Positions 536 through 17,098 of a stretch of DNA of 64,000 nucleotides are shown here, in pieces. The translations under genes were made by a program, and so were the position numbers. Each line of letters begins with the position of its first letter. The first letter of the stretch is position 1. The notes under the pieces are model-generated. The model saw nothing but the letters and a program-made list of their open reading frames with translations, searched no databases and had not been told where the DNA came from. The stretch comes from Candidatus Pantoea floridensis (lineage in GTDB: Bacteria; Pseudomonadota; Gammaproteobacteria; Enterobacterales; Enterobacteriaceae): NCBI RefSeq assembly GCF_900215435.1, contig NZ_OCMY01000001.1, forward strand, positions 1,860,001 through 1,924,000, read 5' to 3'.

Positions 536-1186
536 TTAGTGGCCGAATAGATAATGTCCATTGACCACAATGCCGTTCATAAAGACATGCAGCAATACAG
601 GTAATAACAATCCCTTTGACAAGACTCTCGCAGCAACCAGCGTTAAAGAAATAAGATAGAGAAGAAAGAAAGGCTTAAACCCAGAATACTGAGTGTGCAG
701 CAGCGAAAAAATTAAGGACGTTACAAGCGCAGAGAATATTTTACTATTAGAAAAAACAGTTAACGCGCCAAATAACCCGCCTCTGATGGCTATCTCTTCA
801 TAAACTGGCACCATCAAAATATAAGATATTTGCGTGAGAATAAGCGTATAGAGCGGTAGCGAAATCTGCTGATGGCTGACAACGACTTCGCCTGTGTTAA
901 AAAGTACCTTTGGTATAACAAACTGAATTATTAAAATTAAAGAAAAAAATATAACAAATTGCATTAGTGTAAAGTTACCGACACCGAACCCCTCTTTCTT
1001 CTGAAATTTAAATAGATAAACGGGCACAATTACAAAAAACTCAACTATAAAGCCATACGGTAAAAACAATTCAGACGCAATTAATTCTCTTCGATTGGGA
1101 AAGAGCAACGGAACAGCTGTCAGTAGAAACATCAGAAGAAAAAGAGATACGTTTAACAAACCTTCTTTTTTAGTGTTTGTTTCCAT
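536..1186 (-). CDS. CPBP (CAAX/Abi) family intramembrane metalloprotease homologue in microcin operon
   Basis: Polytopic membrane protein of 216 residues with the three CPBP motifs: EE at 130-131 followed by R135 (EEIAIRGG), H164 in FSLLH, and H200 with N204 near the C-terminus (LLHVFMN). All putative metal-site residues are present, so it may be catalytically active. Family members occur in many bacteriocin loci, where some act in self-immunity and others in processing. It lies 30 bases after the candidate immunity gene and 21 bases before the secretion gene, on the same strand, so co-transcription is likely. The ATG at 1186 has AAGG just upstream. The gene is distinctly AT-rich compared with the chromosome to its right. 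Whether it protects, processes or assists export is inference. Confidence 0.85.
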   Translation of the reverse strand: METNTKKEGLLNVSLFLLMFLLTAVPLLFPNRRELIASELFLPYGFIVEFFVIVPVYLFKFQKKEGFGVGNFTLMQFVIFFSLILIIQFVIPKVLFNTGEVVVSHQQISLPLYTLILTQISYILMVPVYEEIAIRGGLFGALTVFSNSKIFSALVTSLIFSLLHTQYSGFKPFFLLYLISLTLVAARVLSKGLLLPVLLHVFMNGIVVNGHYLFGH

Positions 1187-1478: not shown

Positions 1479-1817
1479 CTATCGGCTGCAGGAACCGCCC
1501 ATCCCACCTGAATTACAATTTCCAGAGGAATTACTGTTACCGTTATTATTACCGTTGCCACTGCCTGTGAAACAACCCCCGGCTATCGCGCCACCGACCA
1601 TTCCCAGGCCTGCGCCGACGATTCCACCAGCGGCCCCAGCAATAGTGCCGCCAATGATGCCATTATTACAACCAACCACATAGCCGCTGTTGTAACCTGA
1701 GCGACCTCCAGCGCCACCGTTATTGCTATTGTTTTTACTATTTGAGCCCCGAGGGGGATCGTTACGACCACCACCACCAGAAATGAAGCTCAGTAATTCT
1801 CTCTCAATTACTTTCAT
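1479..1817 (-). CDS. class II microcin precursor with double-glycine leader and four cysteines
   Basis: A 112-residue precursor. Residues 1-15 (MKVIERELLSFISGG) form a double-glycine leader of the same length and pattern as the microcin V leader: charged/EL, then a hydrophobic run, then SGG. Cleavage after G15 would give a 97-residue peptide. This has a Gly/Asn/Ser/Arg-rich N-terminal part, a hydrophobic glycine-zipper core at about 46-83 (many GxxxG and GG pairs) and an Asn/Gly/Ser tail. Cysteines at 50, 82, 101 and 110 could form two disulfides, as in class IIa microcins. The serine-rich C-terminus that carries a siderophore in class IIb is not evident. The ATG at 1817 is chosen over an in-frame TTG at 1823 because AAAGGAG lies 6 bases before it. 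The following genes encode candidate immunity and export. I recognise no named microcin. Confidence 0.86.
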   Translation of the reverse strand: MKVIERELLSFISGGGGRNDPPRGSNSKNNSNNGGAGGRSGYNSGYVVGCNNGIIGGTIAGAAGGIVGAGLGMVGGAIAGGCFTGSGNGNNNGNSNSSGNCNSGGMGGSCSR

Positions 1818-1870
1818 AAACAACTCCTTTGTTCAATGTTGTAATCCCACATACCTATTCAGCGAGGAGA

Positions 1871-2195: not shown

Positions 2196-3632
2196 TTACA
2201 TCGCCGCTCCCAACGACAACTGGCACCACTGCCCCAGCTGCTGAATCGCCTGCTCCACTTCGGCATTCCAGCCAAAGCCGGCGTTGAGTCGGAAACAGTG
2301 ATCGTAGCGGTCATCAGTGGCGAAAATATGCCCCGGTGCGATACCGATGCCTGCATTACGCGCCTTAAGAAACAGCGCGCGCACGTTCAACGCGCCCAAT
2401 GGCATCTCCACCCATAACACATATCCTCCTTCGGGATCGGAGACGCGCGTGCCCGGCGGGAAGTAGCGCAGCACCGCCTGGCGCATGTGCTGGATTTGGT
2501 TTTTCAGCTCGCGCCGCAGCTTGCGCAGATGGGCGTCGTAGCCGCCGCTGCGCAGCAGTTCGGCAATTGCCGCCTGCGACAGCACCGAGGTTCCCATGCT
2601 GGTGGTGTATTTCAGCGAGGCGATTTTGCGCATGTAGTTGCTGCTGTGCACCCAGCCAATACGTATGCCGGGCGCGACGGTTTTCGAGAAGCCGCTGCAC
2701 AAAATGGCATTTGGGCTGAAGGCGCGCATCGGGAACGGACGACGCTCGCCAAAGGCGGTATCGCCGAAAATATCATCTTCGATGATCACCACATCGTTCT
2801 CGTCGGCCTGGCGGGCGATATAGGCTTTCTGCTCGTTAGGAATGCTTTTGCCCAGCGGATTATTGATGTTGTTAATGGTGAGGTAGGCCTGCACCGCTTT
2901 GCGCTGAAATAGCGACGTCAGTTTTTCAACATTCACGTAGCCTGCAGGGCCAGCCTCCACTTCAATCACGCGTAGATTGAGGTTATGTAGCATTTGCAGC
3001 AGCACAAAATAGCAGGGCGATTCCACTGCGACGATATCGCCAGGCTGCGTCGTCGCGCGCAGCGCCAGAGAGATCGCTTCAATACAGCCATTGGTGATCA
3101 GGATGTCATCTGCACTGATATTGCAGCCATAATCCACCGCCCGGCGGGCAATTTCGGTTTTCAATGGCATATAACCGGTGCCTTTAACCGTATTCCCCAG
3201 CAGCGCCGGTTTGCTGTAACCCATCTGACGCATCAGCAAGCCGATTTTCTTGACCGGATAGAGTGAAATATCGCCGTTCGCCAGATCCAGCCGCACGCGA
3301 CAGTCCGATCCCAGCATCGCCAGATGCAGTTCGGTTTGCTCGTCGAGCGGTGCAACGTCGCGCGCTTGCTCATTGATGACCGCCGGAAAAACATTATCGG
3401 CCTTGCGCGGCGCGACAAAAAACCCGGACTTCGGCCGCGCGACCGCGTAGTGCTCATCCTCAAGCGTACGTAATGTTTTTAGCGCAGTGGTCATACTGAC
3501 ACTGTGCTGCGTTGCCAGCGTGCGCACCGAAGGTAACCGGCTGTCGGGCGGCAGAGAACCACTATGAATGGCTTGTTTTATCTGTTCTGCAATTTGACGG
3601 TAACGACTGCCCTGTTCCGTTTCACCCGCCAT
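2196..3632 (-). CDS. MocR-type regulator: GntR winged helix fused to PLP aminotransferase fold
   Basis: A 478-residue fusion. An N-terminal GntR-type winged helix (about 10-75, with RLPSVRTLATQHSVSMTTA) precedes a class I aminotransferase domain. That domain has NNINNPLG, EDDIFGD and the PLP-binding lysine K317 in SGFSKTVAPGIRIGW. Length and motifs resemble E. coli YdcR. MocR proteins sense PLP or amino-acid-like effectors and often control a divergent gene set. Here the divergent set is the biosynthetic operon starting at 3823, so it is the likely pathway-specific regulator (inference). I chose the ATG at 3632, which has AGGGTGG upstream, over the in-frame ATG at 3671. That choice gives an N-terminus of usual length. 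Confidence 0.85.
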   Translation of the reverse strand: MAGETEQGSRYRQIAEQIKQAIHSGSLPPDSRLPSVRTLATQHSVSMTTALKTLRTLEDEHYAVARPKSGFFVAPRKADNVFPAVINEQARDVAPLDEQTELHLAMLGSDCRVRLDLANGDISLYPVKKIGLLMRQMGYSKPALLGNTVKGTGYMPLKTEIARRAVDYGCNISADDILITNGCIEAISLALRATTQPGDIVAVESPCYFVLLQMLHNLNLRVIEVEAGPAGYVNVEKLTSLFQRKAVQAYLTINNINNPLGKSIPNEQKAYIARQADENDVVIIEDDIFGDTAFGERRPFPMRAFSPNAILCSGFSKTVAPGIRIGWVHSSNYMRKIASLKYTTSMGTSVLSQAAIAELLRSGGYDAHLRKLRRELKNQIQHMRQAVLRYFPPGTRVSDPEGGYVLWVEMPLGALNVRALFLKARNAGIGIAPGHIFATDDRYDHCFRLNAGFGWNAEVEQAIQQLGQWCQLSLGAAM

Positions 3633-3822
3633 CTGTTCCACCCTATTTCGTGATGATCTGTGCGTATTCACCAGATTACATTCAAAGTACTTTAGGCTGC
3701 ATTAGTTAATTGAGAACCCTGCGCGCTGAAAAATTCATTCCGTAACCCCTTCGTGGCCCATTTCCGCTCGCTGCCGCCAGCAGGACAATTGCGATTTTCT
3801 TAGCCAAAGGATGAAGTGAAAA
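3633..3822. promoter_or_regulatory. divergent control region between MocR gene and biosynthetic operon
   Basis: 190 bases shared by two divergent transcription units, the place where a MocR protein would be expected to bind. I could not single out a convincing operator or promoter pair. AAAGGATGAAG precedes the ATG at 3823 and serves as its ribosome binding site. Confidence 0.4.
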
Positions 3823-5289
3823 ATGAATAATCTGTCCGCCATGATGAGAGAAATTGAAGAATATCTCACTGCCACGATTATCGACTCAGCCCAGCGTTGC
3901 TCGCACCGTCTGCTTGCCGCGTTACCCGATGCGGCCAATCCTGGAAACAATCGCGTACTGCTGGCTTATGGCGGCGGCAAAGACAGCAGCTATATGGTGG
4001 CGTATGTACGCTACATTCAGGGACTGATCTGGCAGCAGCACGGCAGCACGTTTCAGTTGCGCATCAGCACCAACCGCCATGCGGCGATGAACGACAGCGT
4101 GATGGAAAATATCGATCGCGTGTATCGCGCGTTGCATATCTTTGAAGATGACTTCACCGAATGTTTGGTAATCGATGGCCTGCAAATCCGCCCTTTCGAT
4201 CGTCATTTGCCCATGCCAGACAGCGTACGTCAGCAGAATCGCAACGATGTGCTGATGAATGGCCACCGTTTCCGTGCCGATGCGCGCTCTACCTTTTGTA
4301 ATGCCTGCAACCTCAGCATGGTGAACTCCTTTGGTTTGGCGGCGCATTATGACGGCGGCGTTGATGTGATCATCACCGGCGATTCACCGCAGGAACAAAC
4401 CGCTTATCTGGCGTGGGCGCGCCATCTATCACGTCTGTTTAATGCACCGGTGGCGGATAAGTCACGCGGCTTTAGCGGCTTCCTGCAAACCTTAGATGGC
4501 GTCGCTGAGCGCTACTTTGCTGATATTTACGGCGCCGATCAGGTGACCCCCGCGCACCGTATTACCTGGCAGCTGGTGCGCGATCCGCTGTTCTTCAACA
4601 TCTATCAAGACACCGCCTATGAAGCCGGCGCGCACTGGGCGCTGCTGACGGAATTTATGCATTTCCGCTTTGATGAGCTGATGTTCAGCTTTTCCGAATC
4701 GGACTGCGGCAACCCGACGTTAATGGCACATATTCGCGGTCTGCGTGCGGAGACGCTATTACAGCGTAGCTACGCCGAAGGCATTCGCGAATATGTGCGC
4801 TTTGCGCTTGGGTTAATGGTGAAAAAGGATTTCCCACCGCAGCTGATCGATGAAATGGCGGCACGTTATCAGGACGATGAAGCGATTAAACGCGCCCGTC
4901 AGCGCGCCGCGCAGTTCGCCGAGCAGGCTTTTGGTCTGAATGAAACCCAGCTGATTTGCATGATCTATTCGCCGTTTATCGCCGCAGGCCACCAGCTGAA
5001 AAACTGGCTGCAGCAGGTAGAGGATGCACCGGACGAAGCGGCAGTGCGCACGCTGCTGGGCGGCGATAACGACGATCTGCTGGTAGCGCAACAGCTGGAG
5101 CAGCTTTCTGGTTTAACCCTTACGCAAATGCGCCATTGCTGGCGCAGCGAGCAGGTGAGTTCACTGCTGGACAGCCAGCGCGGCGATGCGCTCTCACGCG
5201 TGCTGCGTTTTGATCCGCACAAAGTAGTGATTCAGGTGAATAACGGTGTGCTGCAAGACATCGTCACTGAAGTGATCTCCGGGCGTTAA
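3823..5289 (+). CDS. PP-loop (N-type ATP pyrophosphatase) enzyme of a small-molecule cluster
   Basis: A 488-residue enzyme with the PP-loop AYGGGKDSS (residues 48-56). Proteins with this loop adenylate a carboxyl, carbonyl or nucleobase oxygen and then add nitrogen or sulfur. A CxxC pair at C159/C162 (FCNACN) and ITGDSPQEQ further on recall sugar amidotransferase and thiolation relatives, which bind zinc or an Fe-S cluster. The C-terminal half (about 250-488) is helical and I do not recognise it. A separate class II glutaminase is encoded two genes later, so an asparagine-synthetase-like ammonia transfer split over two proteins is plausible (inference). First gene of the operon; the next starts 17 bases on. 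No E. coli orthologue known to me. Confidence 0.8.
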   Translation: MNNLSAMMREIEEYLTATIIDSAQRCSHRLLAALPDAANPGNNRVLLAYGGGKDSSYMVAYVRYIQGLIWQQHGSTFQLRISTNRHAAMNDSVMENIDRVYRALHIFEDDFTECLVIDGLQIRPFDRHLPMPDSVRQQNRNDVLMNGHRFRADARSTFCNACNLSMVNSFGLAAHYDGGVDVIITGDSPQEQTAYLAWARHLSRLFNAPVADKSRGFSGFLQTLDGVAERYFADIYGADQVTPAHRITWQLVRDPLFFNIYQDTAYEAGAHWALLTEFMHFRFDELMFSFSESDCGNPTLMAHIRGLRAETLLQRSYAEGIREYVRFALGLMVKKDFPPQLIDEMAARYQDDEAIKRARQRAAQFAEQAFGLNETQLICMIYSPFIAAGHQLKNWLQQVEDAPDEAAVRTLLGGDNDDLLVAQQLEQLSGLTLTQMRHCWRSEQVSSLLDSQRGDALSRVLRFDPHKVVIQVNNGVLQDIVTEVISGR

Positions 5290-5306
5290 CCCGGTAAGGC
5301 AACGCG

Positions 5307-6584
5307 ATGAGAAAGATTTTCCTGCAGATTGGCGCCACCCGCGATGGGCAAAATCCCTACTGCGCGGTGGCCAAACGCGAGGGCTATTTTACCGTGCTGG
5401 CGGAGATGGGCGATTTTGTCGATTACCAATCGCTAAGCATCCCGTTGCCGTTCGATCTGGTTGTGCGCCTCGATCGCCCGGAAAATCCGTGGGATGTGCT
5501 GCAGGCCTGTTTGCATGCCGGGTTAATGGAACATCCGCAGATCGTGCTGGCAGGCTTTGAGGCCTACAACACCAGCGCCGGGCGCGTGCGGGAGTTGCTG
5601 GCCGGGCCGGACGCCGCCAGGTGCTTTATTCCCCCGGATAAGTACGCTCAGCGCATGGCATTATGCAAAGCCTGGCAGCGGTTTCCGCAGCCGGAATTTC
5701 GCTTCTTCGCCTCACCGCTGAGCATCCGTGACGCGCGTGATGCCCTGCTCTATCCCTGCGTCGTCAAGCCCGTCGACGGCGGCGGCGGCCTGGGCATTTG
5801 GCTCGTCAAAGACGCGCAGCAGCTGAATGCGGTGATCAACAAGCTGGTCGATACCATGAATTACGGCGGTCGCGGCTTCAGCGGCTTTATCGTCGAGAGC
5901 TGGCTGGCTGGCGATGAGTACTCGCTGCAAGGCGTGGTGGCGGAAGGCCATGCGCTGGCGCTGACCTGCTGCCAAAAGGTGATCGAACATCACACCGATG
6001 CCGACGGCTGCGTCAGTTTTTACGAATCCGGCCATGTCGCCGTCGCGGCGCAGCAGCTGCCTGCCAGCTTCTCCAGCCTGATGAGTTTCTGCTGCGAAAC
6101 CTTTGGCTATCGTCAGGGCGCGTTTCACATCGACTTCATTATGGTGAACGGCGAACCGCACTTTCTCGAAATGGGCTTTCGGCTCTCCGGCATGGGCGTG
6201 GTGAATCTGGTGCAGGAAGTCACCGGCATCAACTGGGCTGAACTGGCGTTCCATATCGAAGCCGGTCACGGCCTGCCGCAGCTTGATTTCCCCGCCCAGC
6301 CGCCGGCGGTGGGGCGTGTACGTTTACGTCAGCGCCTGCAATATGACGCCGCAGAACGCTGGATCGCGCAGCAGCAGCGCGGTCAGCTGTTGCCGCCGCT
6401 CAATCTACCGGTGCTGGATGTCTCACCGCGATCTTCGCTGTATGCCGATCTAACCCGTCACGCCGGGATTCTGGCGACCTTTCGTCTTGCGGCAGAGAGC
6501 CGGGACGAGATTCTGGCGGTTTTCCATCAGATCCTCGACGTCTCATCGCTCACCACACAGAGAGATTTACTATGTGCAGAATGA
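5307..6584 (+). CDS. ATP-grasp ligase
   Basis: A 425-residue ATP-grasp protein. K154 in PCVVKPVDGGGGLG is the expected ATP-binding lysine with the glycine-rich flap. FIVESWLAGDEYSLQG supplies the central strand, and E288/R292 in FLEMGFRLSG match the metal and phosphate-binding end of the fold. Relatives couple ATP to carboxylate-amine bond formation through an acyl phosphate, for example in dipeptide and dapdiamide-type antibiotic assembly. The substrate cannot be read from the sequence. It probably joins the cluster's amino-acid building block to a second amine (inference). It overlaps the downstream amidotransferase gene by 13 bases, which suggests translational coupling. Confidence 0.85.
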   Translation: MRKIFLQIGATRDGQNPYCAVAKREGYFTVLAEMGDFVDYQSLSIPLPFDLVVRLDRPENPWDVLQACLHAGLMEHPQIVLAGFEAYNTSAGRVRELLAGPDAARCFIPPDKYAQRMALCKAWQRFPQPEFRFFASPLSIRDARDALLYPCVVKPVDGGGGLGIWLVKDAQQLNAVINKLVDTMNYGGRGFSGFIVESWLAGDEYSLQGVVAEGHALALTCCQKVIEHHTDADGCVSFYESGHVAVAAQQLPASFSSLMSFCCETFGYRQGAFHIDFIMVNGEPHFLEMGFRLSGMGVVNLVQEVTGINWAELAFHIEAGHGLPQLDFPAQPPAVGRVRLRQRLQYDAAERWIAQQQRGQLLPPLNLPVLDVSPRSSLYADLTRHAGILATFRLAAESRDEILAVFHQILDVSSLTTQRDLLCAE

Positions 6585-7279
6585 TTCTGGCGCACGGCCA
6601 ATTTGATGCCGCCGCGGTGCTGGAGGCCGCACGCGCCATGAGCTGCGGCGAAACCGCCACGCATGAAGGACCGATCAAACAGCATCCCAACGGCTGGGGC
6701 TGTTTATGGCTGGAGCAAGGCCACATCCGCACGCTACACGGCACCGGCACCTTCGCCGATGCGCTGCCGGGCATTGATGTTGATCGCCTGCGCGGACGCT
6801 TTTTGGCAGTACATGTGCGCCACGCCACTTTAAGTAAGAATCAGGGTATCGAATTTTCCCATCCGCTGTGGCGCACCAGCGGCGAAACCCAGTGGTACAT
6901 GATGCATAACGGGTTTTTGCCTACTGTGTATCAGCAATTAGGCATGGCCGCGTCGCGCTTCGATTCTGCCGAGTATCTTGAGTACATCGTTGATCGCGCC
7001 ACGCCCGCTGATTTCACCCGCGACTATTTGCGCAACAAAATGGCGCAGGTGGCGCCAGGCGGCAGTTCGGCGAACGCAATTTTTGTTACCCGCGAAAAAG
7101 CCTGGGCATGGCAGTGGCATCCCGCTGATACACCCTATCCCAACTATTTCACGCTGCACCGTTTCCAAAACAACAACACGACATTTATCTCTTCTGAACC
7201 TATTTCGGCACTGGGCACGGCGTCTGAATGGCGCCGCATGAGCAACCATGAACTTCATGAATTTCCTTTAGGGGAGTGA
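6572..7279 (+). CDS. class II glutamine amidotransferase (Ntn-type glutaminase)
   Basis: A 235-residue single-domain class II glutaminase. Cys2, exposed once Met1 is removed, is the expected nucleophile, and this fixes the start at 6572. Further hallmarks are HPNGWGCLW, VRHATLSKNQG and MMHNGFLP, equivalent to the substrate-binding and oxyanion segments of the family (YafJ/EgtC type). No synthetase domain is attached, so it either supplies ammonia to a partner, with the PP-loop enzyme encoded at 3823 as best candidate, or hydrolyses a gamma-glutamyl bond as EgtC does. Both remain open. The start overlaps the end of the ATP-grasp gene, and the stop is 5 bases before the next start. Confidence 0.83.
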   Translation: MCRMILAHGQFDAAAVLEAARAMSCGETATHEGPIKQHPNGWGCLWLEQGHIRTLHGTGTFADALPGIDVDRLRGRFLAVHVRHATLSKNQGIEFSHPLWRTSGETQWYMMHNGFLPTVYQQLGMAASRFDSAEYLEYIVDRATPADFTRDYLRNKMAQVAPGGSSANAIFVTREKAWAWQWHPADTPYPNYFTLHRFQNNNTTFISSEPISALGTASEWRRMSNHELHEFPLGE

Positions 7280-7284
7280 TCAAC

Positions 7285-8085
7285 ATGGCTATTTTCAATC
7301 AGATACGCGTTATAAACCCAGAAATGTTTGTGGAAAGTACCTGGCTGGACGACATCGTTACGGCACGCGTGCCGCTGCTGGTTTTACGCAACTTTCTAAC
7401 GCCGGAGGTGCGCGAAGCCGTGGTGAACGATTTGCAACGCTGCCGCGAGCAGGTGCGCGTATCGCACTACCCCAATGGCGCGTTGACGACGCTCGGCCCT
7501 TATCTGGCGAAGCATACCGCCGCGCCGGAAAACTACTTCACCGAACTGCGCGATATCCAGCCGATGCTGCCGCCCTCGCTGCACTGCCTGCGCGATCAGA
7601 TCTACCATTGGGTGAAACACGCCTTACGTCTGGAAAGCCTGCAAACCGCCAACGAGCCTGAGTTGGGCGATTACGCCGGTTCGATTGTGCGCTTCCACGC
7701 CAACGGCGTCGCCAATCCCCTGCATAACGACAATATCGTGCGTGATGCCGCCGGCAGCGGCCTGACCGTGACCGGGATCTTGCATCAGCTGAGCTGCGTG
7801 GTCTGTTTGCAGGAGTGCAACGCGGGCGGCAAGCTGCGCATCTTCAATAAGAAGTGGCAGCCTCTGGATGAGCGCTTCAAAACGCCGGGGGAACTCGGCT
7901 ATCAAACCGCCGTGATTGAACACAGTGAAGTGTGTGAATTTTCACCGCGCAGTGGCGATATCTACCTGTTTAACCCGGCTTTTTATCATGAAATTGATCG
8001 TGTGGAAGGCGACACGCGCATCACCATGGGCTTTTTCTTTGGCCTGACCGACAAAAAAATGAAACACGCCATCGCCTGGAGTTAA
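7285..8085 (+). CDS. Fe(II)/2-oxoglutarate-dependent oxygenase
   Basis: A 266-residue protein with a double-stranded beta-helix signature. H147 and D149 (LHNDN) with H235 (FYHEID) form the iron facial triad. R245, ten residues after the distal histidine, is placed to bind the 2-oxoglutarate carboxylate (TRITMGFF). It should hydroxylate, desaturate or epoxidise a free or carrier-less intermediate of the cluster; the exact reaction is unknown. I prefer the ATG at 7285 because AGGGGAG lies 8 bases upstream. A GTG at 7276 overlapping the previous stop is possible. Cysteines are frequent in the middle (SCVVCLQEC) but show no recognised site. Confidence 0.82.
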   Translation: MAIFNQIRVINPEMFVESTWLDDIVTARVPLLVLRNFLTPEVREAVVNDLQRCREQVRVSHYPNGALTTLGPYLAKHTAAPENYFTELRDIQPMLPPSLHCLRDQIYHWVKHALRLESLQTANEPELGDYAGSIVRFHANGVANPLHNDNIVRDAAGSGLTVTGILHQLSCVVCLQECNAGGKLRIFNKKWQPLDERFKTPGELGYQTAVIEHSEVCEFSPRSGDIYLFNPAFYHEIDRVEGDTRITMGFFFGLTDKKMKHAIAWS

Positions 8086-8112
8086 CGCCAGGTTTTAGAC
8101 GAGGAGACGAGC

Positions 8113-8613
8113 ATGAACAGTTTTGAAAAAGTGACGGCCCTGCTGGATCAGCATCAGGCGCGCTATCGCGTGGTGGAGCATGAAGCCATTGGCCAAACCG
8201 ATCGAATTAGCGCCATTCGCGGTAACGATCTCAATCAGGCGGCCAAAGCGATGGTGCTGGAAGTGACGATGCCAGAGGGTGCCGATCCGCGCTATCTGCT
8301 GGCGATTGTGCCGGGTGACTGCAAGATCAATTTCAAAAGCGCCGCCCGCGCTATCGGCGGCAAGAAATCGAGCTTTGCTGCGCCTGAAAAGGCGCAGGAA
8401 CTGACGCAGTGCGAGATGGGCGCGGTGCCGCCGTTTAGTTTTGATGACCGGCTGGCGCTGCGGGTTGATAATCGCCTGCGCGATGTTGGCACGCTGTGGT
8501 TTAACGCGGGTGCTCTGGATCGCTCTATGGCGTTACAGGTGGCTGATTTCTTTCGCGTTGTCGGTGAGGAATGTTGTGCCGAGATTGCAACACCGATGAC
8601 GGCAACCGCCTGA
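8113..8613 (+). CDS. YbaK/YeaK-family aminoacyl-tRNA deacylase (trans-editing)
   Basis: A 166-residue single-domain editing protein. K45 (AAKAMVLEV) matches the catalytic lysine of YbaK/ProX. GDCKINFKSAARAIGGKK and the GAVPPFSF loop are typical of this family, and the overall pattern is nearer to E. coli YeaK than to YbaK. Such proteins hydrolyse small amino acids, such as Ser, Ala or Cys, from the wrong tRNA. It lies 27 bases after the oxygenase gene and 21 before the exporter gene. This suggests it protects the producer by removing a charged amino-acid analogue from tRNA (inference). A housekeeping editing role, with coincidental placement, is the alternative. Confidence 0.82.
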   Translation: MNSFEKVTALLDQHQARYRVVEHEAIGQTDRISAIRGNDLNQAAKAMVLEVTMPEGADPRYLLAIVPGDCKINFKSAARAIGGKKSSFAAPEKAQELTQCEMGAVPPFSFDDRLALRVDNRLRDVGTLWFNAGALDRSMALQVADFFRVVGEECCAEIATPMTATA

Positions 8614-8634
8614 ATGCGGCAGTAAGGAAACGGT

Positions 8635-9540
8635 ATGTCAGTAAAAGATATGTTGTTGGCCCTGTGTGTCGTGGTGGCGTGGGGCATCAATTTTGTGGTG
8701 ATCAAGCTGGGTCTGCAGGGCATGCCGCCCTTTTTGCTGGCCGGACTGCGTTTTACCCTGGTGGCATTTCCGGCGATCTTCTTTGTGAAGCGTCCGGCGA
8801 TTCCCCTGCGCTGGCTGGTGGTTTATGGCATGACCATTAGCTTCGGCCAGTTCGCCTTTCTGTTCCTTGCCATCAAGCTCGGCATGCCCGCGGGATTGGC
8901 GTCATTGGTATTGCAGGCGCAGGCATTTTTCACCCTGCTGCTCGGCGCGCTGTTCCTGGCGGAGAAGCTGCGCTGGAATCACATCGTCGGGATTTTAGTG
9001 GCGACGCTCGGCATGTTTATGCTGGCGACTGCCGGCATGGAGGGGCAAACCACCGCGGGCATCACGCTCACCACCATGATGCTGACGCTGGCTGCGGCGC
9101 TGTCATGGGGCCTCGGGAACATCACCAACAAAATCATTTTGCGTAATCGCAGCGTGCCGGTGATGTCGCTGGTGGTGTGGAGCGCGCTGGTTCCGGTCGT
9201 GCCGTTCTTTGCCTGCTCATGGCTGTTTGAGGGGGAAACGGTGATTGTCACCAGCCTGCTGCATATCTCGCTGCAAACTCTATTGGCGCTGATCTACCTC
9301 GCCTTTGTCGCCACCATCATGGGCTATGCGATTTGGGGCAATCTGCTCAGCCGCTACGAAACTTGGCGTATAGCGCCGCTCTCTTTGCTGGTACCGGTGG
9401 TGGGGATTCTCAGCGCTGCGTTGATTCTGAATGAGACCCTGTCGCTACGGCAGATGATCGGCGTTTCCGTGATCATTCTCGGCCTGCTGGTCAATGTATT
9501 TGGCGGGATGGTGACGCAGCGATTAGCGGTGCGCACCTAA
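8635..9540 (+). CDS. eamA: EamA family exporter (O-acetylserine/cysteine exporter)
   Basis: A 301-residue drug/metabolite transporter with ten predicted helices in two EamA repeats. As remembered, it matches E. coli EamA (YdeD) along its length: WGINFVVIKLGL, MPAGLASLVLQAQAFF, YLAFVATIMGYAIWG and SRYETWRIAPLSLLVPVVG. E. coli EamA exports O-acetylserine and cysteine. Here it is the last gene of the cluster operon, 21 bases after the deacylase, with TAAGGA before its ATG and a strong terminator after it. It may therefore export the cluster's amino-acid-like product, or be a conserved exporter next to the cluster. Confidence 0.88.
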   Translation: MSVKDMLLALCVVVAWGINFVVIKLGLQGMPPFLLAGLRFTLVAFPAIFFVKRPAIPLRWLVVYGMTISFGQFAFLFLAIKLGMPAGLASLVLQAQAFFTLLLGALFLAEKLRWNHIVGILVATLGMFMLATAGMEGQTTAGITLTTMMLTLAAALSWGLGNITNKIILRNRSVPVMSLVVWSALVPVVPFFACSWLFEGETVIVTSLLHISLQTLLALIYLAFVATIMGYAIWGNLLSRYETWRIAPLSLLVPVVGILSAALILNETLSLRQMIGVSVIILGLLVNVFGGMVTQRLAVRT

Positions 9541-10288: not shown

Positions 10289-10648
10289 ATGAATATGATG
10301 AAACGCTTTCCGCTCACCGCTGTGCTGGTGTGCACGACCTTTGCGACCTCGGGCTGCTCCAGCGTTATGTCTCATACTGGCGCAAGTCAGGGCTATTATC
10401 CCGGCACGCGCGCCAGCGCAGAGATGCTGACTGACGACAAAACCAGTTGGGCGATCAAGCCGCTGGCGCTGATCGATTTACCTTTCTCCGCCGTGATGGA
10501 TACGATTCTGCTGCCGTGGGATTACTTCCGTTCCGATGACGACAGAAGTAAAGATTCCATACACGAGCGCGTGCTGCAGAGCGAAAAGCTGGCGGGCACC
10601 CAAGCCAGCCTGGCGACTGCAGCATCTATGCCTGGGGAATCGCACTAA
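10289..10648 (+). CDS. yidQ: YidQ/YceK-family lipoprotein
   Basis: A 119-residue predicted lipoprotein with a hydrophobic signal peptide ending in the lipobox-like TSGC. This is followed by SSVMSHTGASQGYYPGTRA and the family core IDLPFSAVMDTILLPWDY. The family is found in the cell envelope and its function is unknown. Divergence from ibpA is the same as in E. coli. Several in-frame starts exist (GTG 10241, ATG 10268, 10289, 10295). I chose 10289 because GAAGGGA lies 8 bases upstream. The 3' end overlaps the converging yidR gene by 23 bases. Confidence 0.85.
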   Translation: MNMMKRFPLTAVLVCTTFATSGCSSVMSHTGASQGYYPGTRASAEMLTDDKTSWAIKPLALIDLPFSAVMDTILLPWDYFRSDDDRSKDSIHERVLQSEKLAGTQASLATAASMPGESH

Positions 10649-11888
10649 CGCAGAATAGCTGACGCCACCCCTCAACATCCCGCATATAGGCGATCTGCTC
10701 GCCATCCGGCGACCATACCACTGCATCACCGGATGGCGCTTGCTCACTACGTTGTGTCAGACGTGAGCATTGCCCCGTCGCCACCTCACAGCGCATGACG
10801 CTGTTATCGCAAATGAAGGCTATCGCGTTGCCAGCAGGTTGCCAGCTGAAGGCGGACTGAATGCTACTCGCCAGCTGTGTGATCTGACGCGGTTCTCCGC
10901 CATTAGGCGATACCTGCCACAGCTGCACGACGTCGCGATCGTCTGCCATTAAGAAGGCAATGGCGCTGCCGTTGGGTGCGGCGCGTAGCCAATGACGCGG
11001 CTGCGGTGCTAAACCTCTGCCGTGCGTAATGCGTCGCTGCTGCACGCCCGCCGGGGGCGCTGGCAGTTTTTCGGCTGTGCCCTGCAAAGGCGATGCGCCT
11101 GCTTTCGCGTAATCCGCCAAAGGTTCGGGTAAATCCACGACAAAGATTTCTGCCACTTTGTCGCCATTCGCCGCACGCGTATCGCCGATAAAGGCAATTG
11201 CCCAGCGCTGCCAGCTTCCATCGGCTTTCTGATAGCCTTGATCACCTATCCAGCACTCTTCATAAGCGCGGTCAATCTGATCGCTGCCGGGCTGTGGCTC
11301 ACGCTGCGTCTGGCTTATCAGCACGCAATAATGGCTGCCGTCATATTCACGCGGATGCTGTTTGGGCGGACACACCGGATGCAGCGGTACCGCAACGCCC
11401 ACGTTGCGCAGGTCATCGCGCGCATCCTTTTCATGCATCACGTGATCGTTGTAGGTAAAACTCAGGCGTGTCCCATCGGGGCTGAAGACGTGCACATGTG
11501 AACCACCGCGTAATGCCCCGGGCGTATAAGGCGCGGTGATGTCACAGGCATCGAGATTCTCCGCCATGCCTTGCTGCACGATTACGCCGCGACGGTGATG
11601 AAAATCATAGCGCCAGTGTGCATCCGGATGTTCTGGGCCGTGAATGCAGACATAACGTGGTGGCAAATCCGGGCTAACGGTCACCACGCCAACGTGTGCG
11701 CCATCGCGCGCCTGATACAGCACTTCAACGGCACCACTCGCCACATTGACGCGTTCGATAGTCAGGCTGGTAAAAGAGGCGCCGGAAGGTCGCACATCAA
11801 ACGCCAGCCATTGGCTGTCGCCGGTCCAGACGTTGATGTTGGTCAACTGGTGATGACGCTGAGCAAAGGTGAGTTGTTTTTCTGACAT
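10626..11888 (-). CDS. yidR: YidR (DUF3748) beta-propeller protein
   Basis: A 420-residue protein of the DUF3748/YidR family. It has repeated TolB/WD-like blades (FSPDGTRLSFTYND, APNGSAIAFLMAD, WQPAGNAIAFICD, WSPDGEQIAYMRD) that suggest a six- or seven-bladed propeller. It has no obvious signal peptide, so it is probably cytoplasmic. The function is unknown. Position between yidQ and the dgo genes is as in E. coli, where the propeller has been noted as similar to oligogalacturonate-lyase folds. The ATG at 11888 follows AAGG with 7 bases spacing. Confidence 0.85.
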   Translation of the reverse strand: MSEKQLTFAQRHHQLTNINVWTGDSQWLAFDVRPSGASFTSLTIERVNVASGAVEVLYQARDGAHVGVVTVSPDLPPRYVCIHGPEHPDAHWRYDFHHRRGVIVQQGMAENLDACDITAPYTPGALRGGSHVHVFSPDGTRLSFTYNDHVMHEKDARDDLRNVGVAVPLHPVCPPKQHPREYDGSHYCVLISQTQREPQPGSDQIDRAYEECWIGDQGYQKADGSWQRWAIAFIGDTRAANGDKVAEIFVVDLPEPLADYAKAGASPLQGTAEKLPAPPAGVQQRRITHGRGLAPQPRHWLRAAPNGSAIAFLMADDRDVVQLWQVSPNGGEPRQITQLASSIQSAFSWQPAGNAIAFICDNSVMRCEVATGQCSRLTQRSEQAPSGDAVVWSPDGEQIAYMRDVEGWRQLFCVSAIPQA

Positions 11889-11986
11889 GAGGCAACCTTA
11901 CAGCTAACAGTTGCCGGATAAATTACGTGATTTGCAGGCGGGATGCGACTAAACCCGGTCGCCATTATCGTGCGGCTATTAGCCAA

Positions 11987-12044
11987 GTCGCCATGAATGG
12001 CGACCCTACGGCACGGTTTTGTAGGGTGCGCATTCATGCGCACC
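11987..12044. repeat. paired intergenic palindrome module, copy 1
   Basis: Palindrome GTCGCCATGAATGGCGAC (11987-12004), then CCTACG, a short spacer, GTAGGG, then palindrome TGCGCATTCATGCGCA (12027-12042). The CCTAC/GTAGG parts form an inner inverted repeat. A degenerate further unit precedes it at about 11957-11983. It lies between dgoT and yidR. Confidence 0.8.
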
Positions 12045-12051
12045 GGATGAG

Positions 12052-13344
12052 TTAACCCACGCGCTTCACGTCACCAACCAGCAGGATGTACGACAACGCA
12101 CCGATCAGCGCCACGGCTGAGATATACACCAGCGCAGGCGCAAAGCCATAATCCTGCGCCAGATAGCCCACCACCAGCGGTACAGTGATGCCGCCCAGGC
12201 CACCGACAAAGTTGAACATCCCGCCGGTCAGGCCAATCAAGCGCACCGGCGCCAGCGACGACACCAGCGACCAGGTAATCGAAGCGAAGCCGTTGCCGAA
12301 GAAGGCGATGGCCATCAACGTCATAATCCAGATGGGATCGTTAGTGTAGTTAGCGCCCATGATGCAGGTTGAAATCAGCAAGCCGCAGATAATCGGCGTT
12401 TTACGGGCGAACCCAAGTGAACGGCCGCTGCGCACCAGGCGATCGGCAACGATGCCCGACAGAATCACGCCAACAAACGCCGCGAGGAAAGGCACCGTGG
12501 TCATAAAGCCCGCGGTCAGCGCCGCGATGTGTTTTTCCTGCGTCAGGTAGTTTGGGAACCAGGTCAGGAAGAACCACAGCGTTGACGTCACCGCGAATTG
12601 GCCGAGATACACGCCGCACAGCTTGCGATGGAATACCAGTTTCCAGTCGGCAGCGGTAAGTTTGGTACGGGTTTTCTTCTCGCTCGGCGCATCGCCATCA
12701 ACCATCGCGCCCCCTTCGCGGATATAATCCAGCTCGGCTTTGTTGATGCCTTTGCTCTGACTCGGTGCCTGATAGCACTTAATCCAGACCAGCGACCAGA
12801 TAATGCCGATGGCCCCGGTGATGATGAACACCCAATGCCAGCTCAACAGTTCCTGGATCCAGATCAGCAGCGGCGTCAGGAATGCCAGGCCAACAAACTG
12901 GCCGGAGGTATAAAAGCCCACCGCTGAAGCGCGCTCCTGTTCCGGGAACCAACTGGTCACCAGACGGTTATTGGTGGGGAAGGCGGGCGCTTCAAAGATG
13001 CCCGTAATAGCGCGCAGGCCAATTAAGGATAATAAGCCCGTCGCGAATCCCTGGAATAGCGTTGCGACCGACCAACCGAAGATGGCAATAAAATAGGTTA
13101 AGCGTGAACCAACGCGATCAAGGAACCAACCGCCGGGAATCTGGCACAGCGTATATAACCAGGCAAAGGCAGAAAATACATAACCCATTTGCGCTTTGGT
13201 GATGCCGAATTCTTCCTGAATATGGGCAGAGGCCACCGCTAAATTAGCGCGATCGACATAACAAATAACCACCGTAATAAAGATCATCAACAAGGTAATA
13301 TAACGACGGCGCGTCGGTTTGGCGTGAACAGCAGAGAGATCCAT
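12052..13344 (-). CDS. dgoT: D-galactonate:H+ symporter DgoT
   Basis: A 430-residue major facilitator (anion:cation symporter subfamily) with twelve predicted helices. It matches E. coli DgoT nearly throughout as remembered: [44 protein letters not shown] and the C-terminus LVGDVKRVG. It brings D-galactonate into the cell for the enzymes encoded just upstream. It is separated from dgoD by 245 bases, which hold an AT-rich stretch but no gene, and may be read from the dgo operon or from its own promoter. ACGGAG precedes the ATG. Confidence 0.96.
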
Positions 13345-13589
13345 GGTGTTTCTCCGTAATCGCGATTGCCGTTAAGGTGCGATAAAGCGCGCCCCGGTAA
13401 ACGCAGGTAGTGGTAACAAAGGTAAAGCCGCCGTGGCGGTAAATAAGCTGTGCCGGGAAAAAGGCTGAGTGAAGCCCTATGCCCTATTTCACCGGCATAT
13501 AATCGTTTAGATTTAATTTAATTAAACTTAATATCCTAAATAATTTAAGTGGCAGAAAACACATCTGCAGCTTAAATTAAGATGGGTAT

Positions 13590-14738
13590 TTACCATTCAG
13601 CAACTGAACCGTCCGGGAATCTCCAGAGTGGGTTTCTCCAGTCCGGTGCATTTTTACTGCGTTCAATCACTAACTCTTCGTTAATTTCCACGCCGAGGCC
13701 CGGTTTATTTAACGGATAGAAATGACCGTCATCCATTTTGAAATCGTCTTTATTGATCACGTAATCGAGCAGTTCAGCGCCCTGATTATAGTGAATCCCC
13801 ATGCTTTGTTCCTGGAACACCGCATTGCGCGAGACGAAATCGACGTGCAGGCACGCCGCCAGCGCGATCGGGCCCAGCGGGCAGTGTGGTGCCAGCGCGA
13901 CATCGTAGGATTCGGCCATTGCGGCAATTTTGTAGCACTCGGTGATACCGCCCGCATGCGACAGATCCGGTTGCAGAATCGCCAGACCACCCGCTTCCAG
14001 CACGCGTTTGAATTCAAAGCGCGAGAACATACGTTCGCCAGCGGCAATTGGGATGTGGGTTTGTGCGGCGAGGCGCGGATAGTATTCCGCCTGTTCGGCC
14101 AGCACCGGCTCTTCAATAAACAGCGGACGATAGGGTTCCAGCTCTTTGATCAGCACTTTTGCCATTGGCGCACTGACGCGGCCGTGGAAATCGAGGCCGA
14201 ATTCAATCTCTTTACCGAAGGCTTCACGAATCTGTGCCACGGTATTGACGGCCTCATCGACCTTACGCGCATTATCGATGATGCCCATCTCTTCGCAGCC
14301 GTTGAGTTTGAAGGTATCAAAACCGATAGTGCGCAGTTTCTTAATGCCATCAATCACCTCTGATGGGCGATCGCCGCCTACCCAGCTGTAGGCTTTGATG
14401 CTGTCGCGCACTAAGCCGCCGAGCAGTTGATAAACCGGTACGCCCAACGCTTTGCCTTTGATATCCCACAACGCCTGATCGATACCGGCGATGGCGCTCA
14501 TCAGAATCGGGCCGCCGCGATAGAAACCACCGCGATACATCACCTGCCATAAATCATTGATGCGCGCCGGATCCTGGCCAATCAAATACTCCGACAGCTC
14601 GTGCACCGCCGCTTCCACGCTGCGAGCGCGCCCTTCGATGACCGGTTCGCCCCAGCCGACAATGCCTTCATCGGTTTCAATTTTCAGGAACATCCAGCGC
14701 GGCGGCAGGCGATAAGTGGTCAGTTTGGTAATTTTCAT
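13590..14738 (-). CDS. dgoD: D-galactonate dehydratase
   Basis: A 382-residue enolase-superfamily enzyme that converts D-galactonate to 2-dehydro-3-deoxy-D-galactonate. It has the same length as the E. coli enzyme, with D183 and the catalytic H185 in [12 protein letters not shown] and [10 protein letters not shown] supply the other metal ligands, and a later histidine in [13 protein letters not shown] corresponds to the second acid-base site. The start codon overlaps the dgoA stop by 4 bases (ATGA type), so the two are translationally coupled. Confidence 0.96.
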
Positions 14739-15352
14739 CGTACAGCGTCCTTATAAGCAGCAATAAATGCGCGAGCCTGTTCCACAGTGCGCGACAACGG
14801 TTGCCCGGCGCGATAAAGATCGCTACCTAAGCCGGCACCAATGCAGCCTGCGGCCATAAACTCATGCAGGTTCTCCGGCGTCACGCCGCCCACGGCAAAC
14901 ACCGGCACCTCTGGCGGCAACACCGCTTTCAACGCTTTGATGTAGCCCGGACCAAAAGCCGACGACGGGAAAATTTTCAGCGCCTGCGCACCGGCCTGTA
15001 AAGCAGTGAACGCTTCAGTGGCGGTCGCACATCCAGCGGCAACGATCATGCCTTTGGCCACCGCCTGGCGGATAACCGCAGCATCGGTATTCGGCGTGAC
15101 CACTAATTTGCTATTCAGCGTCGCCAGCTCGTCGACCTGCGCCGGATTCAGCACCGTGCCGGCGCCAATTAGCGCCTTGTCGCCAAAGGTTTTCACCATC
15201 GCGCCAATACTTTTGCCCCATTCCGGCGAGTTCAGCGGGATTTCAATCGCGTCGAAACCCGCGTCGATCAGTGCGCCAACGTGCGCTTCCGCTTCATCCG
15301 GCGTGATACCGCGCAGAATCGCGATCAGCGGAACCTTAGTTTGCCAGGACAT
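14735..15352 (-). CDS. dgoA: 2-dehydro-3-deoxy-6-phosphogalactonate aldolase
   Basis: A 205-residue class I aldolase of the KDPG/KDPGal type that splits KDPGal into pyruvate and glyceraldehyde 3-phosphate. K126 in [12 protein letters not shown] is the Schiff-base lysine and E37 in IEIPLNSP the general acid-base, at the same positions as in E. coli. I chose the ATG at 15352 because AAGGAG lies 8 bases upstream; a TTG at 15358 is too close to that site. It overlaps the end of dgoK by 17 bases. Confidence 0.96.
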
Positions 15353-16214
15353 TCGCAATACTCCTTATTCCGTGCTGGAAAGCACGATCGCCCTCCAGCG
15401 TGACTGAATCCAGGCCGATAAAATGCAGCGCCTGCTGATAGCGTTGCGCCAGCGCACTTCCGGCAATAATGGTGATCGGTTGGCTGCCTGCCGCGTGGTT
15501 TTTTGTCATTAGCGCCACTTCGTGGCCGATCAGTAAACCTGAGAGAAAATCACTGATATGGCGGCGATCGCGCGCACCGAGTACGTGTGAAGCACGCACC
15601 TCAAACAGCCGAGACAGAATCGAGGCATCGTTGCTACCGATCTGTAGGCCATCAAGGAAGGCGGTGGCGTTCTCTTCTTGCTGCGGTAAACCGGCACCCA
15701 CCAGCGACTGTTTCAGCAGCAGATGGTGTAGCTCACCGGTCATGACGGTACGGAAATCCAGCACGCGATCCTGTTCCACCTGCACCCATTTAGCATGCGT
15801 ACCGGGCATGACGTAGAGCGGCGCGGGCTGCAATGCCAGCGCACCGAGTAGCTGTGTCTCTTCACCGCGCATCACGTTGTAGTTGTCGTCACGTTCGACG
15901 CTCAGTCCCGGCACGATCCATGCCTTATCTTCAACGCGCGTCAGTCGGCTACTCAACTCACCCAGCGCCACCGGGCAGGACAGATAGGGCACCGATAGCC
16001 AGCCCGCGTTGCTGCCAACCATGCCGGCCATGACGACGGGAACGTCATTGGTTGGCCAACCGTCGGTCACGCTGGCAAAGACTTCGGCAGGTGTGCGCTC
16101 GCCCAGGCGCGTGACACCCGCTTCTGAACGGCGCTCCTCTTTGCATTCACCGGCCTGATAATACCAGGCGCGCAGGTTGGTCGATCCCCAATCAATCGCG
16201 ATATAGCTGGTCAC
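15336..16214 (-). CDS. dgoK: 2-dehydro-3-deoxygalactonokinase
   Basis: A 292-residue sugar kinase that phosphorylates 2-dehydro-3-deoxygalactonate, between the dehydratase and aldolase steps. The N-terminal phosphate-binding strand YIAIDWGSTNLRAW and the segment YVMPGTHAKWV are typical of the DgoK family. The start is a GTG at 16214 overlapping the dgoR stop, with AAGGAG upstream. Confidence 0.94.
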   Translation of the reverse strand: MTSYIAIDWGSTNLRAWYYQAGECKEERRSEAGVTRLGERTPAEVFASVTDGWPTNDVPVVMAGMVGSNAGWLSVPYLSCPVALGELSSRLTRVEDKAWIVPGLSVERDDNYNVMRGEETQLLGALALQPAPLYVMPGTHAKWVQVEQDRVLDFRTVMTGELHHLLLKQSLVGAGLPQQEENATAFLDGLQIGSNDASILSRLFEVRASHVLGARDRRHISDFLSGLLIGHEVALMTKNHAAGSQPITIIAGSALAQRYQQALHFIGLDSVTLEGDRAFQHGIRSIANVLAN

Positions 16215-16909
16215 ATAATCTCCTTGAGTCGTGCCGTTGAGCTGGCAATCATCGCTTTAGCCGCCTGCTCCGCTGCATCACCATCCTGATGGCGAATGGC
16301 ATCAAACAGCGCTTTATGTTCGGCTAAGGTGCGCGGCATATTGCCTTCATCAGCCATATAGGTTTGCGCAAACACCGCTTTTTGCAGCTGGCTGATTGCC
16401 ACATTGAGCTGCTGCAATACCGGGTTGTGCACCGAATTCAACACCGCTTCGTGATAGCGAATATCCGCTTCGTTAAAGGCTTCACGATCGAGGTGATTGG
16501 CCACCATCGCGTTGTAGGCCAGCTCAATGGCGGCCAGATCGGTTGAAGTGGCTCGCTCGGCTGACCAGCGCGCAATCTGCGGCTCCACCAGCACACGCAC
16601 TTCGTTCATTGCCGCAATCAGACGCGGATCCTGATCGTGCGCCAGCGCCCACTGCAACACATCGCTATCCAGATAGTTCCACTGGTTACGTGGCGTGACG
16701 AAGGCGCCGCGATAGCGCTTCATCTCCATTAAACGCTTCGCCATCAGCGAACGAAAAACTTCACGGATGATGTTGCGCGAGGTGCCAAAACGCTCACACA
16801 GTTCAGCTTCCGCCGGCAACGCCGCACCTGGCACAAACTTCCCTGCCACAATCTCTTCACCCAGCGTGAGGATGATGCGTTCCGTTTTACTTAATTGTTC
16901 TTGCGTCAT
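16211..16909 (-). CDS. dgoR: GntR/FadR-family repressor of galactonate catabolism
   Basis: A 232-residue regulator. The GntR winged helix is at about 10-75 (GAALPAEAELCERFGTSRNIIREVFRSL) and is followed by a helical FCD ligand-binding domain. E. coli DgoR represses the dgo operon and is released by D-galactonate. It is the first gene of the operon, as in E. coli, so it is autoregulated. A strong palindrome lies 70-105 bases upstream. Confidence 0.93.
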   Translation of the reverse strand: MTQEQLSKTERIILTLGEEIVAGKFVPGAALPAEAELCERFGTSRNIIREVFRSLMAKRLMEMKRYRGAFVTPRNQWNYLDSDVLQWALAHDQDPRLIAAMNEVRVLVEPQIARWSAERATSTDLAAIELAYNAMVANHLDREAFNEADIRYHEAVLNSVHNPVLQQLNVAISQLQKAVFAQTYMADEGNMPRTLAEHKALFDAIRHQDGDAAEQAAKAMIASSTARLKEIM

Positions 16910-16979
16910 GATGTTCCATTCAGTGAAAGGCGATAGCGCATCAGATTACTGCTTTCGTTCCGCGAAGCCTACGCCGCCG

Positions 16980-17013
16980 ATTGTAGTACCATCACGTTAA
17001 GTTGTACTACAAT
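16980..17013. promoter_or_regulatory. putative DgoR operator
   Basis: Perfect 10-base inverted repeat ATTGTAGTAC (16980-16989) and GTACTACAAT (17004-17013) with a 14-base spacer, upstream of dgoR. Each arm carries TTGTA-GTAC, the sort of half-site GntR/FadR regulators use. The wide spacing suggests two dimers or one long site. Confidence 0.7.
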
Positions 17014-17098
17014 GTGGATCACAAAATAGACAATCCATATGTGAAATCGCGGTAGGGTTGCCAGACATGGCGTAATGCTCGTCAGTTAAACCAGAATC

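What the first reader, a model, noticed from the sequence alone, without database searches (positions are those of the whole stretch)
2196..9540. Compact biosynthetic cluster: PP-loop + ATP-grasp + glutaminase + 2OG oxygenase + tRNA-editing protein + exporter
Six same-strand genes with overlaps or gaps of 5-27 bases and a divergent MocR regulator form a self-contained pathway without NRPS or PKS modules. The enzymes predict activation of a carboxyl group, amide or amidine formation, ligation to an amine and oxidation. The set differs from the dapdiamide type known in Pantoea, although that also uses ATP-grasp and 2OG enzymes.
Basis: partly seen in the sequence, partly recalled or inferred. Interest (0 to 1): 0.85.

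Follow-up and report, generated by a model that had tools for sequence, protein, structure and literature searches.

The report
Core Pantoea operon for unknown metabolite
Most Pantoea species carry a seven-gene unit that probably builds and exports a small amino-acid-like compound, and its key enzyme belongs to an unnamed family that also has relatives in Streptomyces, Nostoc and myxobacteria.

Summary
All seven genes recur in the same order in 26 of 26 loci fetched from named genomes, 24 with the same three downstream genes, under purifying selection. The PP-loop gene is found in 50 of 61 genomes of the genus, but in only 3 of 394 of an order-wide sample (all the same genus) and 1 of 369 of a class-wide sample (this genome). 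So it is a native-composition, near-core Pantoea trait, not a strain-specific antibiotic island, and it does not fit what I could read of the 12 antibiotic clusters catalogued in Pantoea. Shared contig lengths and locus tags place PP-loop, glutaminase and oxygenase genes together in Pseudomonas, Pseudoalteromonas and Nostoc too. The PP-loop protein has no Pfam, NCBIfam or PDB sequence match; its model is nearest to an amidine-forming sugar amidotransferase, tied with a tRNA thiolase. The oxygenase has the WelO5 fold but an HxD site, so it should hydroxylate, not halogenate. Best reading: ammonia-dependent amide or amidine formation on an amino acid, ATP-grasp ligation, hydroxylation, export, and a tRNA-editing protein for self-protection. 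Product unknown; reactions are inferred.

The parts
2196..3671 (-). MocR-type regulator (GntR HTH + PLP aminotransferase fold); true start may lie inside this ORF
   Evidence: PF00392 54 bits, PF00155 100 bits; best NCBIfam models YczR/PdxR below cut-off; 76-97% identical in the 26 relatives
3674..3702 (.). conserved block between MocR and the operon, containing AAAGTACTTT (a perfect palindrome by eye); putative MocR operator or promoter
   Evidence: found with at most 3 mismatches in 25 of 26 relatives, 10 mismatches in the Hafnia locus; the palindrome core is unchanged in 21 of 26; the rest of the spacer diverges in an 11-row alignment; unique in the window with up to 3 mismatches. Against: the repeat finder listed no inverted repeat of 8 nt or more, no sigma-70 consensus hit lies there
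3823..5289 (+). unnamed PP-loop ATPase-like protein: AYGGGKDSS motif, C159xxC162 and C295, C-terminal ISGR
5307..6584 (+). ATP-grasp ligase, distant from L-amino acid ligase BL00235 and DdaF
   Evidence: PF02655 53 bits, PF13535 47 bits; PDB 3vot E 1e-11
6572..7279 (+). class II glutamine amidotransferase-type (glutaminase) protein, EgtC/PurF-like
   Evidence: PF13230 29.4 bits; Cys2 in 28 of 30 rows and R83, H97, N113, G114, D131 in all 30; profile finds EgtC and PurF structures weakly
7285..8085 (+). WelO5-fold Fe(II)/2-oxoglutarate oxygenase with H150-N-D152 ... H238 site (numbered from GTG 7276); predicted hydroxylase
8113..8613 (+). YbaK/INS-superfamily aminoacyl-tRNA editing domain protein
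   Evidence: PF04073 76 bits, below the YbaK equivalog cut-off; one of 5 PF04073 places in the genome, closest paralogue 42% identical
8635..9540 (+). EamA/DMT exporter, relative of the O-acetylserine/cysteine exporter
   Evidence: PF00892 106 bits; PRK11453 388.7 bits against cut-off 472

Best explanation
The unit is a MocR-controlled pathway that makes and exports a small amino-acid-derived metabolite. Most likely steps: (1) the PP-loop protein adenylates a carboxylate or amide oxygen of an amino-acid substrate and, with ammonia released by the class II glutaminase, turns it into an amide or amidine; (2) the ATP-grasp ligase joins it to a second amino acid through an acyl phosphate; (3) the WelO5-fold, HxD-type 2OG enzyme hydroxylates the product or a precursor; (4) the YbaK-like protein hydrolyses tRNA mischarged with the free amino acid; (5) the EamA protein exports the product; (6) the MocR protein senses an amino-acid-like effector at the conserved intergenic block. 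Shown here: gene content, catalytic residues, predicted folds, synteny, selection and distribution. Inferred: every reaction, the order of steps, co-transcription and self-protection. Odds: exported amino-acid-type metabolite about 0.8; ammonia-dependent amide or amidine role for PP-loop plus glutaminase about 0.45; antimetabolite or antibiotic function about 0.5.
For: Tight gene spacing and families. Gene order in 26 of 26 relatives, low dN/dS, one copy of this protein in the genome. Glutaminase catalytic residues conserved in relatives named from Streptomyces, Nostoc, Sorangium and Actinoplanes. PP-loop model ranked nearest to NASAT 8wex, with ammonia-using GMP and NAD synthetases also in the list; NASAT makes an amidine group (sugar-NC(=NH)CH3) and was proposed to use ATP to AMP+PPi (PMC10607449, abstract and passages). 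2OG facial triad HxD in 25 of 25 on a WelO5 fold. Glutaminase and PP-loop genes travel together, by shared contig lengths and Nostoc tags 54280/54300. The Methylobacter plasmid copy sits with an AsnRS-like protein annotated asparagine synthetase A, a B12-binding and a methylaspartate mutase E protein, EamA and a MocR-like protein, pointing to an aspartate-family substrate and an exported product there.
Confidence: 0.45

Rival explanations
1. Sulfur route: the PP-loop protein is an iron-sulfur (CxxC...C) thiolase of the NcsA/TtuA type that makes a thioamide, thioacid or thiol on an amino acid. The ATP-grasp adds, and the EgtC-like glutaminase removes, a gamma-glutamyl protecting group. The cysteine-like product explains the YbaK and cysteine-exporter relatives.
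Against: Spacing from the CxxC to the third cysteine is about 135 residues, against roughly 90 in NcsA/TtuA (recalled). No sulfur donor or desulfurase gene among the seven. The loop around C295 is poorly modelled (289-293 pLDDT<50).
Confidence: 0.2
2. Nitrile route: the PP-loop protein works like QueC, taking an acid to an amide and then dehydrating it to a nitrile, for example a beta-cyanoalanine-type amino acid; the Methylobacter set would make its methyl homologue.
For: QueC profile score 42.7, about equal to NASAT; AsnRS-like protein and methylaspartate mutase families beside the Methylobacter copy would supply a beta-amide.
Against: Only one such neighbourhood was seen; the QueC reaction and its cysteine pattern are recalled, and no structural support for QueC over other PP-loop families was obtained.
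Confidence: 0.12
3. Conserved physiological or stress metabolite (osmolyte, metallophore or signal) and not an antimetabolite; the tRNA-editing protein is only quality control.
For: 50 of 61 genomes of the genus, same downstream genes in 24 of 26, GC 57.2% against 53.8% for the window.
Against: No match in 11 of 61 genomes of the genus (at least three of these are small or incomplete: G664, G666, G674). Rare outside it: none of the other-genus genomes in the order sample or class sample, two other genera in the family sample (4 of 246 positive in all). A dedicated editing domain and exporter suggest a product that must be kept away from tRNA (inference).
Confidence: 0.35
4. It is one of the antibiotic clusters already known in Pantoea, for instance PNP-2 (six genes, 5.8 kb).
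For: Same gene number and nearly the same length as PNP-2: 5,784 bp in PMC11350110 against 5,718 bp here.
Against: PNP-2 holds a predicted ferredoxin reductase (pnp2E), is 41.89% GC, occurs in 30 of 2,527 Pantoea genomes and in Proteus and Providencia (PMC11350110 passages and tables). Here: no such domain among the six genes, 57.2% GC, 50 of 61 genomes. None of the 12 surveyed clusters exceeds 1.9% of Pantoea genomes in that paper's table. No sequence comparison was made.
Confidence: 0.03

Closest known systems
N-acetyl sugar amidotransferase (NASAT/WbuX/WbpG, TIGR03573; LpNASAT 8WEX)
   Different: No TIGR03573 hit, 8% identity in the structural alignment, conserved CxxC plus one distant Cys instead of the tetracysteine zinc site reported for LpNASAT; sits with amino-acid-type genes, not LPS genes
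WelO5 carrier-independent halogenase
   Different: Iron ligand Asp (HxD) present in all 25 aligned; WelO5 has Gly there (5iqu is its G166D variant)
Dapdiamide cluster of Pantoea (DdaF ATP-grasp; DdaC 2OG recalled)
   Same: ATP-grasp ligase plus 2OG oxygenase, small NRPS-free peptide logic
   Different: ATP-grasp 41.3 bits against DdaF cut-off 840; nine genes and no PP-loop/glutaminase pair there (the latter recalled); dapdiamide in 8 of 2,527 Pantoea genomes (PMC11350110)
Tabtoxin cluster (TblS beta-lactam synthetase, TblF ATP-grasp, TblC; recalled)
   Same: Glutaminase-fold plus PP-loop chemistry, ATP-grasp ligase, 2OG-type enzyme, exporter (recalled)
   Different: TblS is one Asn-synthetase-like chain (recalled); here the two are separate proteins and the PP-loop one matches no Asn synthetase model
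L-amino acid ligase BL00235 (3vot)
   Same: Closest PDB sequence to the ATP-grasp protein, E 1e-11
   Different: Only the ATP-grasp core aligns (residues 145-315)

Membership tests
WelO5 halogenase | WelO5 fold / PF22814 | tested here: met
WelO5 halogenase | Gly in place of the iron-binding Asp (HxG) | tested here: not met
   H150-N-D152 in the window and in 25 of 25 aligned
N-acetyl sugar amidotransferase (NASAT) | TIGR03573 model over cut-off | tested here: not met
   no NCBIfam family at E<=1; no TIGR03573 match at E<=1e-40 in the own genome
N-acetyl sugar amidotransferase (NASAT) | PP-loop Rossmann-like fold | tested here: met
N-acetyl sugar amidotransferase (NASAT) | zinc tetracysteine motif | tested here: inconclusive
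   C159, C162, C295 and C26 near-invariant, geometry not measured
NcsA/TtuA [4Fe-4S] thiolase | CxxC plus third Cys on a PP-loop fold | tested here: inconclusive
class II glutamine amidotransferase | N-terminal catalytic Cys2 and Asn-Gly oxyanion pair | tested here: met
   Cys2 in 28 of 30 rows (two rows start later), N113-G114 in 30 of 30
EgtC | TIGR03442 over cut-off | tested here: not met
   19.4 bits against 218.65
YbaK Cys-tRNA(Pro) deacylase | TIGR00011 equivalog cut-off | tested here: not met
   54.4 against 153.25 bits; Pfam tRNA_edit itself is met
O-acetylserine/cysteine exporter | PRK11453 equivalog cut-off | tested here: not met
   388.7 against 472 bits
dapdiamide pathway | DdaF model NF041595 | tested here: not met
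   41.3 against 840 bits
PNP-2 cluster | ferredoxin reductase gene pnp2E | tested here: not met
   no such domain among the six genes; feature read in PMC11350110; no sequence comparison made
PqqD-type RRE protein (source label of some homologues) | PqqD domain | tested here: inconclusive
   no PqqD match in the window protein, the Methylobacter protein, P0091, P0094, P0113, P0119 or P0107; a weak match below the filters is not excluded

The most novel reading that the evidence does not exclude
A phylum-spanning natural-product pathway that I found no description of, built around a new PP-loop enzyme family: with a stand-alone class II glutaminase it converts the side chain of an aspartate-family amino acid to an amidine or nitrile, a WelO5-fold hydroxylase and an ATP-grasp ligase finish a small peptide-like antimetabolite, and a dedicated tRNA-editing protein protects the producer. 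Most Pantoea species would carry it as a near-core competitive trait.
Probability: 0.25. Interest if true: 0.78.

Novelty: new variant of a known kind. Interest (0 to 1): 0.55.

Why it matters
The catalogued Pantoea antibiotics are rare accessory clusters, each in under 2% of sequenced strains in the table of PMC11350110. A pathway found in about four fifths of the genus's species genomes (50 of 61) would be a genus-level trait with an unknown product. Its central enzyme belongs to a sequence family without a Pfam, NCBIfam or meaningful PDB anchor, yet one search returned 500 relatives (best 120 listed, candidates capped), so one biochemical result would annotate a large unnamed family in Streptomyces, Nostoc, myxobacteria and Proteobacteria. 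It would also correct a misleading 'halogenase' label on the oxygenase.

Tried and rejected
Halogenase reading rejected: HxD in 25 of 25. Defence-system reading: only one weak generic 2OG hit (30.4 bits) in PADLOC for the 6 operon proteins. Recent-island reading rejected for the operon: GC 57.2% against 53.8% for the window and shared downstream genes in 24 of 26; the upstream side is not conserved, as the two genes upstream of MocR were found in only 1 of 26 relatives. Viral collection: 61 pattern hits, none a relative. E. coli genomes: no match to 3823-7276. Plasmids, whole unit: all 19 matches fall in the EamA gene; PP-loop protein: one plasmid, Methylobacter; 2OG protein: one weak Streptomyces match beside a putative ATP-grasp-modified RiPP set, judged unrelated; ATP-grasp protein: 107 records, only partial matches, none covering 80% of the query in one place. 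Class-wide survey with the PP-loop family profile: 1 of 369 genomes, this one only, so no further neighbourhoods came from it. PNP-1, PNP-2 and the other catalogued clusters do not fit. Profile comparison could not choose between PP-loop families (an earlier, poorer version is). QueC is not among the 50 structural rows shown, which decides nothing. Papers were searched (all 10 allowed); none of the listed titles and abstract starts points to this gene set, but the library holds open-licence papers only, and the PNP-2 paper itself is not held. Papers seen: PMC4010436, PMC7744662, PMC2922099 and PMC10607449 as search listings plus passages; PMC11350110 as listing, abstract, outline and passages; the other listed papers as listings only. 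I could not view the neighbourhoods in Streptomyces, Nostoc, Pseudoalteromonas or myxobacteria; the links there rest on shared contig lengths and locus-tag numbers.
Full report
Observation. The window carries six consecutive + strand genes at 3823-9540 and a divergent MocR-type gene at 2196-3671, as reported. Distances between the six are 17, -13, -4, 27 and 21 bases; with the likelier ATG start of the oxygenase at 7285 the third is a 5-base gap. Pfam and NCBIfam assign GntR+aminotransferase (MocR), ATP-grasp, class II GATase, WelO5-type 2OG oxygenase, tRNA_edit and EamA; the 488-aa first gene has no match in either library. The genome holds one copy of that protein at E<=0.001.

Conservation. 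A scan of named genomes returned 26 loci, labelled Pantoea, Erwinia, Enterobacter and Hafnia. All seven genes were matched in order in 26 of 26, and the three downstream genes (Hsp20 type and two neighbours) in 24 of 26 (missing in L013 and in the Hafnia locus L025; L011 has about 2 kb more before them). The two genes upstream of MocR were found in only 1 of 26. These are sequence matches; intactness of each copy was not checked, and the L023 gene is shorter. Identity of the PP-loop protein is 67-94%. NG86 dN/dS lies at about 0.05-0.19 for the six operon genes in 11 of 12 comparisons; synonymous sites were saturated for five of those six genes in the Hafnia pair. In the genus, 50 of 61 genomes have the PP-loop gene at E<=1e-20; among these it is split over three frames in one (G655) and incomplete in two (G652, G667); of the 11 without it, G664, G666 and G674 are small or incomplete genomes. 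In a family sample it is in 4 of 246, two of them of other genera; in an order sample 3 of 394, all of this genus; in a class sample 1 of 369, this genome; in a phylum sample 7 of 398, five of them distant (29-32%) copies in one other genus. Proteins 64-71% identical are also named from Yersinia, Serratia, Citrobacter, Salmonella and a Pseudomonas. GC is 57.2% for the operon and 53.8% for the window. So the unit is native and long kept in Pantoea and sporadic elsewhere.

Wider distribution. Protein search returned 500 relatives of the PP-loop protein at E<=0.001 (candidates capped, best 120 listed), including 46-49% identical proteins named from Streptomyces, Myxococcus, Archangium, Micromonospora, Nostoc, Brevibacillus and Pseudoalteromonas. 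The oxygenase and glutaminase have relatives in several of the same groups. Matching contig lengths in the rows I copied (71, 95 and 90 of the 120, 116 and 105 listed) gave 26 contigs shared by at least two of the three proteins. They include Pseudomonas sp. LB3P31 with all three, Pseudoalteromonas luteoviolacea (PP-loop J8M21_13325, oxygenase J8M21_13340) and Nostoc sp. NIES-4103 (PP-loop 54280, glutaminase 54300). Equal contig length is indirect evidence, and a chance tie is possible for the short contigs. One Streptomyces protein (P0235) carries an ATP-grasp and a WelO5-type domain in one chain.

Regulation. Between MocR and the operon a 29-base block (3674-3702) is kept with at most 3 mismatches in 25 of 26 relatives; the Hafnia locus has 10 mismatches. 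Its AAAGTACTTT core, a palindrome by eye, is unchanged in 21 of 26. The rest of the spacer diverges in an alignment of 11 rows whose ends I cut by hand. The repeat finder reported no inverted repeat and no promoter consensus falls there. It is the natural candidate for the MocR site (inference).

A clue to the substrate. On a Methylobacter plasmid, a 41% PP-loop homologue lies between a B12-binding protein and a methylaspartate mutase E protein, with an AsnRS-like protein (annotated asparagine synthetase A) upstream and an EamA exporter and a MocR-like protein downstream; the last shows only the aminotransferase domain and abuts a transposase gene. This is a single case. It suggests that the family acts on an aspartate-type amino acid whose acid or amide group is further converted.

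Interpretation. Together these support a regulated pathway for an exported amino-acid-type metabolite. Ammonia-dependent amide or amidine formation is the best single guess for the PP-loop and glutaminase pair; sulfur transfer and nitrile formation are live rivals. An antimetabolite role is suggested by the tRNA-editing protein and exporter but is not shown, and genus-wide conservation is equally consistent with a physiological metabolite.

Known or new. None of the catalogued Pantoea antibiotics fits what I could read: PNP-2 has the same gene number and nearly the same length, but contains a predicted ferredoxin reductase, is 41.89% GC and occurs in about 1.2% of Pantoea genomes (PMC11350110). 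No direct sequence comparison with those clusters was possible here. No title or abstract start listed points to the set; the library is limited to open-licence papers. I file it as a new variant of a known kind: an NRPS-free, ATP-grasp-type amino-acid pathway with an unnamed PP-loop enzyme family.

Noticed in passing
window 1479-1823 (-) and 536-1186 (-): A Gly/Asn-rich 114-aa ORF with a double-glycine-type leader lies next to an Rce1/CPBP-type membrane protein (PF02517); it looks like a class II microcin precursor with a putative immunity protein, in a 41.2% GC stretch. Both genes have a match in only 1 of the 26 related loci (L026).
   Followed up: partly
L037:8599-10023, L038:8940-10433, L039:9147-10580: Pseudomonas-like genomes carry a PP-loop homologue that has lost or altered the GGGKDS and CNAC motifs directly beside a MocR-type gene: a possible pseudo-enzyme and regulator pair.
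   Followed up: partly
L036 (Methylobacter sp. YRD-M1 plasmid) 10330-17096: PP-loop gene with AsnRS-like, B12-binding and methylaspartate mutase E genes, EamA exporter and a MocR-like gene without a detected HTH that abuts a transposase gene.
   Followed up: partly
P0121-P0236 family: Some public records label this oxygenase family 'halogenase WelO5 family' or 'prolyl 4-hydroxylase', but all 25 aligned members have the HxD site of hydroxylases.
   Followed up: yes
some of P0014-P0114: Several homologues of the PP-loop protein are named 'PqqD family protein', yet no PqqD domain was found in the window protein, the Methylobacter protein or the five homologues scanned.
   Followed up: partly
   Followed up: no
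window 28062-28142 (+): AsdA antisense RNA of dnaA (Rfam RF02674, 100.8 bits), about 18.5 kb downstream of the operon.
   Followed up: no
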